A stretch of DNA of 34,884 bases from a virus. The DNA lies in IMG/VR virus record IMGVR_UViG_3300021509_000007, positions 1 to 34,884 of that record; one strand, given 5' to 3'. This document shows positions 375-835 of the stretch, one piece after another. The translations under genes were made by a program, and so were the position numbers. Numbering within the stretch: position 1 is the stretch's first letter; every line of letters starts with the position of its first letter. The notes under the pieces are model-generated. The model searched no databases and had not been told where the DNA came from. It was given only the letters and a program-made list of their open reading frames with translations.

Positions 375-617
375 ATGGAAATCAAAGTCCTTTTAGAAAG
401 TAAGGAAGTTCCTTTGGATGCTCAACAAATGGGCATTACAATGGATACACCTGAAACTGAAATACTTAAAGCATGTGCCCCTGTTATTTTGGAAGAAACA
501 GGAGTTAATATTGAGGCTGATACTGAAGGCTACATTTATACGGTAAGAAAAATGACGGATACAGATACAATTTATATTTTACCTAAAGCAGAGGCGGGAT
601 TGTATGACTCCTCTTGA
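375..617 (+). CDS. Small ubiquitin-like (prokaryotic Ub / PRTRC-C-like) modifier
   Basis: This 80-residue protein has the predicted layout of a beta-grasp ubiquitin-like fold: strand 1 (MEIKVLLES), a second short strand, a helix (about residues 26-42, starting TPETEILKACAP), a strand with a YIYTVRKM motif and a last strand ending YILPKAEAG. The TPE-helix and Y-T-x-R-K plus I-L-P pattern resembles small prokaryotic ubiquitin-like proteins found in operons with E1, E2 and JAB genes. The C-terminus is AG followed by five residues (LYDSS), so exposing Gly75 would need proteolytic trimming, a job the JAB-like protease in the same operon could do (inference). The ATG is preceded by GGAGGG at 363-368. 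The stop codon overlaps the first stem of the downstream RNA. Assignment is by pattern and neighbours, not by a search. Confidence 0.65.
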   Translation: MEIKVLLESKEVPLDAQQMGITMDTPETEILKACAPVILEETGVNIEADTEGYIYTVRKMTDTDTIYILPKAEAGLYDSS

Positions 618-835
618 GAAGAACTTACAAGCACCTGATATGTGGAATCAGGAATGGGGCCTAGCCCACTCTAGGAGTTCTTCTCACTTAGGAGTCGTTT
701 TGATAACAACAAGCTCCTCTAATGCAGGAATTTACAAGCTAATCGCCCAATTGGATAGGCATCAGCTCCAAAAGCTGATGGTTACGGGTTCAAGTCCCGT
801 TTAGCTGGCCAAAACAATTCCTGCAACTTAGGAGC
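615..835 (+). ncRNA. Y RNA-like structured RNA with tRNA-mimic core
   Basis: Three structured parts lie between the ubiquitin-like gene and the Ro60-like gene. First, an 11-bp perfect stem pairs 615-625 with 676-686, with internal small hairpins (632-636 with 647-651, and CCTAG with CTAGG at 660-664 and 671-675). Second, a closing helix GCTCCT (713-718) with AGGAGC (830-835), continued by a perfect 9-bp helix 724-732 with 816-824. Third, inside that helix, a complete tRNA-like fold at 735-811. A helix that closes the ends plus an internal tRNA mimic is the known architecture of bacterial Y RNAs of the YrlA type, which are typically encoded next to Ro60 (Rsr), as here. The exact 5-prime and 3-prime ends are unknown. 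It may be processed from the operon mRNA or have its own start. I could not confirm a Ro60-binding consensus by eye. Confidence 0.8.
735..811 (+). ncRNA. tRNA-like module (cloverleaf with encoded CCA)
   Basis: The acceptor strands 736-742 and 801-807 pair with one mismatch at the first pair; C735 can pair with G808. The D arm is 745-760 with GG in the loop (753-754). The anticodon-type arm has TCAGC (762-766) pairing with GCTGA (774-778) around a 7-base loop TCCAAAA. A 5-base variable region follows, then a perfect T arm ACGGG-TTCAAGT-CCCGT (784-800) and a genomically encoded CCA at 809-811. Against a working tRNA: the position-33 equivalent is C instead of the near-invariant T, the nominal CAA anticodon (Leu) lacks the long variable arm of tRNA-Leu, and the module is enclosed in a further 9-bp helix. 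It is best read as a tRNA mimic within a Y RNA. Confidence 0.75.

What the first reader, a model, noticed from the sequence alone, without database searches (positions are those of the whole stretch)
615..835. Y RNA-like RNA whose core is a near-complete tRNA with encoded CCA
Nested helices (9-bp perfect stem plus GCTCCT/AGGAGC) enclose a cloverleaf with perfect T arm, D arm with GG and a CCA end. It lies directly 5-prime of a Ro60 gene, as bacterial Y RNAs do. The T-loop TTCAAGT and the acceptor are so tRNA-like that host RNase P, CCA-related and tRNA-modifying enzymes might act on it.
Basis: partly seen in the sequence, partly recalled or inferred. Interest (0 to 1): 0.85.

Follow-up and report, generated by a model that had tools for sequence, protein, structure and literature searches.

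The report
Y-like RNA carrying an unpermuted tRNA
A phage carries two or three small structured RNAs beside a distant relative of the Ro60 RNA-binding protein; one holds a whole tRNA-shaped core attached the opposite way round from the tRNA mimics of known bacterial Y RNAs.

Summary
Positions 711-837 form two nested helices (8 bp and 10 bp) around a normal-order tRNA cloverleaf (736-811, Rfam tRNA 48.2 bits) with encoded CCA, just 5' of an ORF at 862. The window and two related viral contigs hold 2, 3 and 2 such RNAs. The outer helix covaries strongly (98.9% paired; 9 of 18 pairs with double changes), while interiors vary and no anticodon is conserved, so this is a tRNA mimic rather than a decoding tRNA.

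The ORF is invisible to Pfam TROVE, but its vWA half matches Ro60 by profile comparison (pairwise E about 1e-5 to 1e-7). The N-terminal ring domain is unproven.

The unexpected point is topology. At genuine Ro60 genes, classifiable tRNA-like domains are nearly all circularly permuted (T arm before D arm, Y stem where the anticodon arm would be). Here the tRNA is unpermuted and the Y stem joins the acceptor end. I found one other such case, at an Armatimonadota Ro60 gene. It works like a bacterial Y RNA but is not a YrlA member: a new variant of a known kind. The operon also holds a ThiF E1 and a JAB-like ORF. No expression or binding data exist.

The parts
711..837 (+). RNA2: Y-like RNA with nested outer helices around a normal-order tRNA core
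   Evidence: Fold; covariation with RNA1 and relatives
711..718 (+). RNA2 lower helix, 5' strand (pairs with 830-837)
   Evidence: 8 pairs, 100% paired, 4 with double changes
830..837 (+). RNA2 lower helix, 3' strand
719..722 (+). Internal loop 5' side (CTAA); CT invariant in the aligned RNAs; putative Ro60-like protein contact
   Evidence: alignment; function inferred
826..829 (+). Internal loop 3' side (ACTT); CTT invariant; a similar ACTT is seen at the same place in some canonical Y RNAs
   Evidence: function inferred
723..732 (+). RNA2 upper helix, 5' strand (pairs with 816-825)
   Evidence: 10 pairs, 98% paired, 5 with double changes
816..825 (+). RNA2 upper helix, 3' strand
736..811 (+). 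tRNA-like core in normal order: acceptor 737-742/801-806, D stem 745-747/758-760, anticodon stem 762-766/774-778 (loop TCCAAAA), T arm 784-800, CCA 809-811
   Evidence: ARAGORN; Rfam 48.2 bits; pair counts
605..697 (+). RNA1: companion Y-like RNA without a tRNA core (lower helix 605-612/690-697, upper helix 616-625/676-685)
   Evidence: Fold; covariation; same place in L001 and L003
862..2415 (+). Ro60-like protein gene: helical N-terminal half plus vWA domain (DISGSM, GATDC)
   Evidence: hhalign vWA pairwise E 2e-6 and 1e-5, 2.5e-7; no Pfam hit
320..348 (+). Sigma-70-like promoter TTGACA-17-TATTAT ahead of the operon, also visible in L001 and L003
   Evidence: sequences
375..617 (+). 80-aa ORF (76 aa in relatives, ending ...KAEAGL), possible ubiquitin-like modifier; its stop codon lies inside RNA1
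   Evidence: identity inferred from position only, no family hit
2405..3280 (+). 291-aa ORF of unknown family, co-conserved with the Ro60-like gene
   Evidence: no family hit
3507..3938 (+). ORF with a JAB/JAMM-like HTH-x8-S-x2-D motif
   Evidence: sequence; no family hit to JAB
3908..4498 (+). ThiF-family E1-like protein
   Evidence: Pfam ThiF 1.2e-11; PRTRC_ThiF 1.4e-9, below its cut-off

Best explanation
The locus encodes a phage Ro60-like RNP. The nested helices with their small internal loop (5' CU.., 3' ACUU) are the binding site for the Ro60-like protein encoded just downstream and are shared by all RNAs of the set. The interiors are exchangeable effector modules. In RNA2 this is a full, unpermuted tRNA mimic joined to the Y stem at its acceptor end. 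It probably tethers, or blocks, a host protein that recognises tRNA elbows or acceptors, as YrlA tethers PNPase to Rsr. RNA1, and the second RNA of L001, would give the same protein other partners or gate its ring. The tRNA core is not used for decoding. Shown here: RNA architecture, outer-helix covariation, interior turnover, vWA homology and gene linkage. Inferred: protein binding, the tether or gate role, and the identity of the partner.
For: Seven RNAs in three contigs (window included) share the outer architecture and the TTACAAG that follows it. The outer helix covaries. The tRNA core is kept as tRNA in three loci (48.2, 50.7, 48.2 bits), with 96.5% of pairs kept and 3 double changes. 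No anticodon is conserved: loop TCCAAAA in the window, CTGTAAA in L001, CTGTAA in L003. The gene's vWA half is Ro60-related: E 2e-6, 4e-7, score 46.4 against a shuffled maximum of 24.5. In sister phage L150 the rest of RNA1, all of RNA2, the Ro60-like gene and most of the next ORF are gone together. YrlA precedent for tethering: PMC8394870, PMC4726728.
Against: No expression or binding data. The N-terminal half of the protein has no significant TROVE match and both AlphaFold models are poor (pLDDT 38 and 42). The canonical 5' GCCGA and GGTTA motifs of bacterial Y RNAs are absent. Only a few close contigs (proteins 93-96% identical) carry the set, so sampling is shallow. The joint loss in L150 could be a single deletion.
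Confidence: 0.6

Rival explanations
1. RNA2 is a genuine phage tRNA gene whose precursor merely folds into a long leader-trailer helix; host RNase P and exonucleases release a working tRNA.
For: ARAGORN and Rfam accept it as a tRNA with encoded CCA.
Against: Anticodons differ among close relatives: CAA by ARAGORN here, GTA in L001, no readable anticodon in L003. Bacterial Leu and Tyr tRNAs need a long variable arm (general knowledge) and these have about 5 nt. U33 is C here. The acceptor carries mismatches or is re-registered (A1.G72 here, G3.A70 in L001, shifted in L003). The outer helix covaries and is shared with RNAs that hold no tRNA. Nearly all ordinary tRNAs examined lack comparable enclosing helices.
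Confidence: 0.07
2. The RNAs are decoys for a tRNA-targeting host factor, such as an anticodon nuclease or other tRNA-cleaving defence, and the Ro60-like protein only stabilises them.
For: The anticodon loop is the fastest-changing part while T arm and CCA are kept. A competitive-inhibitor role was proposed for YrlA, which is not cut by the Salmonella anticodon nuclease (PMC7790460).
Against: No anticodon nuclease or host is identified. RNA1 and the second L001 RNA lack a full tRNA, so a decoy role does not explain the set.
Confidence: 0.15
3. The hairpins are cis-acting: processing or attenuation elements in the operon mRNA that set expression of the Ro60-like gene, for example RNase III or RNase P sites.
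For: They lie between an upstream ORF and the gene within one operon behind a good promoter, and RNA1 overlaps the upstream stop codon.
Against: Their number varies (2, 3, 2) and interiors are replaced while helix sequences covary; one search shows no convincing terminator there. An intact cloverleaf is unnecessary for this.
Confidence: 0.12
4. The tRNA core is a recent, functionless tRNA insertion or pseudogene within a hairpin.
For: Mismatched acceptor, drifting anticodon loop.
Against: tRNA pairing is kept across three loci with 3 double changes, though the count is small and does not clearly exceed shuffles (62/500). A second, reduced tRNA-like interior occurs in L001 RNA2.
Confidence: 0.06

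Closest known systems
YrlA (bacterial Y RNA with tRNA-like domain; Salmonella, Deinococcus, mycobacteriophages)
   Same: Encoded next to a Ro60-type gene; 5' and 3' ends pair into a long helix with an internal loop; tRNA-like effector domain inside; often several Y RNAs together.
   Different: YrlA's tRNA-like domain is circularly permuted, with the Y stem at the anticodon position (PMC11472068). Here the core is unpermuted, has an anticodon arm and encoded CCA, and the Y stem joins the acceptor end. GCCGA and GGTTA motifs absent.
Armatimonadota Y RNA at L156 (minus strand, reverse coordinates about 1253-1372)
   Same: Normal-order tRNA-Pro-like core inside a Y stem, directly 5' of a Ro60 gene.
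   Different: Canonical GCCGA and GGTTATC motifs; bona fide TROVE protein; no evident sequence relation to the window RNAs.
Vertebrate Y RNAs (hY1-hY5)
   Same: Lower stem, internal loop and upper stem forming the Ro60 site (PMC4726728).
   Different: No tRNA-like domain; Rfam Y_RNA does not match.
Ubl-JAB-E1-E2 operons of row 6d in Iyer 2006 (PMC1779556); equating these with the PRTRC cassette is from memory
   Same: ThiF E1, JAB-like ORF and a small ORF in one operon.
   Different: A Ro60-like protein and Y-like RNAs sit inside; Ub-like and E2-like identities unproven.

Membership tests
YrlA / bacterial Y RNA | Encoded beside a Ro60 (TROVE) gene | tested here: inconclusive
   Adjacent gene has a Ro60-like vWA half but no significant TROVE half
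YrlA / bacterial Y RNA | 5' and 3' ends pair in a long helix with a conserved internal loop | tested here: met
   18 pairs, 98.9% paired, 9 with double changes; invariant CT and CTT
YrlA / bacterial Y RNA | Circularly permuted tRNA-like domain (T arm, capped acceptor, D arm) | tested here: not met
   Normal order here; in TROVE-positive bacterial loci 38 permuted against 4 normal, 9 against 1 in viral Ro60 loci; many T loops could not be classified
YrlA / bacterial Y RNA | Conserved GCCGA and GGTTA of canonical bacterial and phage Y RNAs | tested here: not met
   Absent from window RNAs; seen in L129, L132-L134 and many of L153-L182
YrlA / bacterial Y RNA | Bound by Ro60 in cells | not testable with these tools
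   Needs pull-down
Ro60 (TROVE + vWA) | Pfam TROVE PF05731 and vWA_Ro60 PF25045 above cut-off | tested here: not met
   No hit at E up to 10; bona fide phage Ro60 do hit
Ro60 (TROVE + vWA) | Ro60-type vWA domain | tested here: met
   hhalign pairwise E 2e-6, 2.5e-7, 1e-5; DISGSM and GATDC motifs; 46.4 against shuffled maximum 24.5; no other vWA family was run as a control
Ro60 (TROVE + vWA) | N-terminal TROVE HEAT-repeat ring | tested here: inconclusive
   Score 18.9 against shuffled maximum 21.8; AlphaFold pLDDT 38 and 42; Foldseek top hit Ro60 9nf8 at E 0.007, but the model is poor and its alignment contained Ro60s
Functional tRNA | tRNA covariance model score | tested here: met
   48.2 bits, gathering 29
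Functional tRNA | Conserved anticodon with matching identity class | tested here: not met
   CAA, GTA and unreadable in three relatives; Leu and Tyr calls with short variable loops
Functional tRNA | Aminoacylated in cells | not testable with these tools
   Needs northern or tRNA sequencing
Iyer 2006 row 6d (PRTRC-like) cassette | ThiF E1-like protein | tested here: met
   Pfam ThiF 1.2e-11
Iyer 2006 row 6d (PRTRC-like) cassette | JAB peptidase, Ub-like and E2-like proteins | tested here: inconclusive
   JAMM-like motif by eye; no family hits for the other ORFs

The most novel reading that the evidence does not exclude
These RNAs are a second architecture of Ro60-linked tRNA mimicry: an unpermuted, acceptor-tethered tRNA with encoded CCA, arisen independently of YrlA and also present in kind at an Armatimonadota Ro60 locus. 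In this phage the RNP is wired into a ubiquitin-like conjugation cassette, so that RNA binding by the Ro60-like protein may direct protein modification.
Probability: 0.3. Interest if true: 0.82.

Novelty: new variant of a known kind. Interest (0 to 1): 0.64.

Why it matters
The tRNA mimic of known Y RNAs presents its acceptor end away from Ro60. Here the Ro60-like protein would sit at the acceptor end and the anticodon arm and elbow would point outward. If both architectures serve the same purpose, the shared surface (elbow and T arm) is what the partner reads, which makes the question of what the tRNA-like domain is for directly testable. The link to an E1- and JAB-containing operon suggests a role not described for Ro60 RNPs in the papers I could search.

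Tried and rejected
Rfam Y RNA or YrlA match: none, but none was found at bona fide Ro60 loci either, so this is not evidence against. Phage tblastn with the Ro60-like protein, JAB-like ORF or structural proteins: no useful relatives. Genome collection scan with the Ro60-like alignment: none, so the host is unknown; TnpB similarity on plasmids did not identify it. Specific 3' and 5' patterns found only the same contigs. AlphaFold twice, poor both times; the Foldseek result is weak and partly circular. Functional-tRNA and plain-pseudogene readings were considered and ranked low. The nested-helix chance test on single tRNAs alone is weak (p 0.025-0.04, and two other loci had an equally long flanking helix); the covariation test carries the weight. 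The primary YrlA papers (Chen 2014, Wang 2018, Sim 2018 and 2020) were not in the library.

Full report
What is there. Window positions 711-837 hold an RNA with an 8-bp lower helix (711-718/830-837), a small internal loop (CTAA/ACTT), a 10-bp upper helix (723-732/816-825) and, inside, a tRNA cloverleaf at 736-811 with CCA at 809-811. ARAGORN and Rfam both report the tRNA. The region folds far better than shuffles (z -6.9). A second RNA of the same build but without a tRNA lies at 605-697. The finding's start coordinate falls inside it.

Relatives. The downstream protein (ORF from 862) finds three IMG/VR contigs at 93-96% identity. L001 carries three such RNAs and L003 two; L002 begins inside the gene. 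All seven RNAs, counting the window's two, share the nested helices, 5' CTCT, TTACAAG after the 5' arm and CTTAG in the 3' arm. On the five distinct outer sequences, 18 pairs are 98.9% standard, 9 pairs have changes on both sides, and the covariation score is 0.628 against 0.257 for shuffles and at most 0.14 for slid helices. Five rows are few and the shuffles do not model relatedness, but the slid control does keep it.

The tRNA core. Three loci keep a tRNA-like core (48.2, 50.7, 48.2 bits). Pairing is 96.5% with three double changes; this does not clearly exceed shuffles (62/500) because there are only three rows. The anticodon loops differ (TCCAAAA, CTGTAAA, CTGTAA). ARAGORN calls Leu(CAA), Tyr(GTA) and unknown. 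Bacterial Leu and Tyr tRNAs have long variable arms (general knowledge) whereas these have short ones. L003 re-registers its acceptor using part of TTACAAG. The second RNA of L001 has only a short acceptor, hairpins and a T arm, without CCA. This is the behaviour of a mimic, not of a decoding tRNA.

The neighbouring protein. It has no Pfam, NCBIfam, PHROG or PDB sequence match, and no TROVE match even at E 10. I built Ro60 sets from phage records, viral contigs and genomes. Profile comparison aligns the C-terminal half to the Ro60 vWA domain, with pairwise E from 1e-5 to 2.5e-7 depending on the set; the score of 46.4 exceeds 100 column shuffles (maximum 24.5). Motifs DISGSM and GATDC match. 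No other vWA family was run as a control. The N-terminal half is not significant (18.9 against a shuffled maximum of 21.8), although YRLMHLAPSPETASILRW resembles the Ro60 segment LLRLAHPK...RW in the same order. AlphaFold failed to give a usable model. I therefore call it Ro60-like, not Ro60.

Topology compared with known Y RNAs. At bona fide Ro60 genes of Vibrio, Mycobacterium and Microbacterium phages the Y stem is followed by a T arm, a capped acceptor hairpin and then a D arm. In 56 TROVE-positive bacterial loci, 38 T loops have the D arm after them, 4 before, 1 both and 41 unclassified. The one bacterial case of a normal-order tRNA inside a Y stem that I found is L156. In 39 viral Ro60 loci the counts are 9 after, 1 before and 43 unclassified. 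Some loci overlap, and some unclassified T loops are plain tRNAs or reduced domains, so these are counts and not a rate. Published work describes the Y RNA crystal structure 6CU1 as circularly permuted relative to tRNA (PMC11472068). The window RNA has the normal order and is joined to the Y stem at the acceptor end. L156 (Armatimonadota) shows the same arrangement in an RNA with canonical Y motifs directly 5' of a Ro60 gene. Unpermuted cores therefore appear to occur at least twice in unrelated sequence; L156 is a single sequence and its fold was not tested by covariation.

Gene context. A strong sigma-70-like promoter (320-348; also visible in L001 and L003) precedes an 80-aa ORF, RNA1, RNA2, the Ro60-like gene, a 291-aa ORF, an ORF with a JAMM-like motif and a ThiF-family E1. 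Iyer and colleagues (PMC1779556) describe operons with a Ub-like protein, JAB, E1 and E2-like protein (row 6d). Here only the E1 is secure. A sister contig, L150, keeps the small ORF and the JAB-like ORF. It has lost everything from the middle of RNA1 through most of the 291-aa ORF, and most of the E1 gene. The module is dispensable there, and the RNAs and the Ro60-like gene went together.

Mechanism. By analogy with Rsr-YrlA, where the Y stem binds Rsr and the tRNA-like domain tethers PNPase (PMC8394870, PMC4726728), I propose that the nested helices bind the Ro60-like protein and the interiors select partners. Steps shown: RNA architecture, covariation, interior turnover, vWA homology, gene linkage. 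Steps inferred: binding, partner, role in infection. A decoy role against tRNA-cleaving defences remains the best rival; a competitive-inhibitor role has been suggested for YrlA (PMC7790460).

Novelty. Tandem Y RNAs with a tRNA-like member beside Ro60 in bacteria and phages are known (from memory Chen 2014, cited in PMC8394870 but not held in the library; 359 phage records matched a Ro-like protein). New here are the unpermuted, acceptor-attached core with encoded CCA, the very divergent Ro60-like protein, and the link to an E1-bearing operon. I rate it a new variant of a known kind.

Noticed in passing
L156 minus strand, reverse coordinates about 1253-1372: An Armatimonadota Y RNA directly 5' of a Ro60 gene appears to enclose a normal-order tRNA-Pro(TGG)-like core, unlike the permuted domains around other Ro60 genes.
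   Followed up: partly
window 375-4498: Operon of a small ORF, a JAMM-motif ORF and a ThiF E1 surrounds the Ro60-like gene, resembling ubiquitin-like conjugation cassettes.
   Followed up: partly
L150 4230-5110: Sister phage contig with a natural deletion: half of RNA1, RNA2, the Ro60-like gene, most of the 291-aa ORF and most of the E1 gene are missing.
   Followed up: yes
window 6747-7784: TnpB / Cas12f1-like transposase ORF (PF07282, 1.2e-13).
   Followed up: no
L133 3774-5232; L135; L138: Phage Ro60 genes often sit near or inside tRNA arrays; in Gordonia phage Forza a tmRNA gene also follows the Ro60 gene.
   Followed up: no
window 16311-16964 (-): Calcineurin-like phosphoesterase ORF (PF00149, 2.7e-7).
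   Followed up: no
L127 32646-33025: Group I intron (54.7 bits) in Vibrio phage vB_pir03, next to an RNA polymerase beta prime subunit gene.
   Followed up: no
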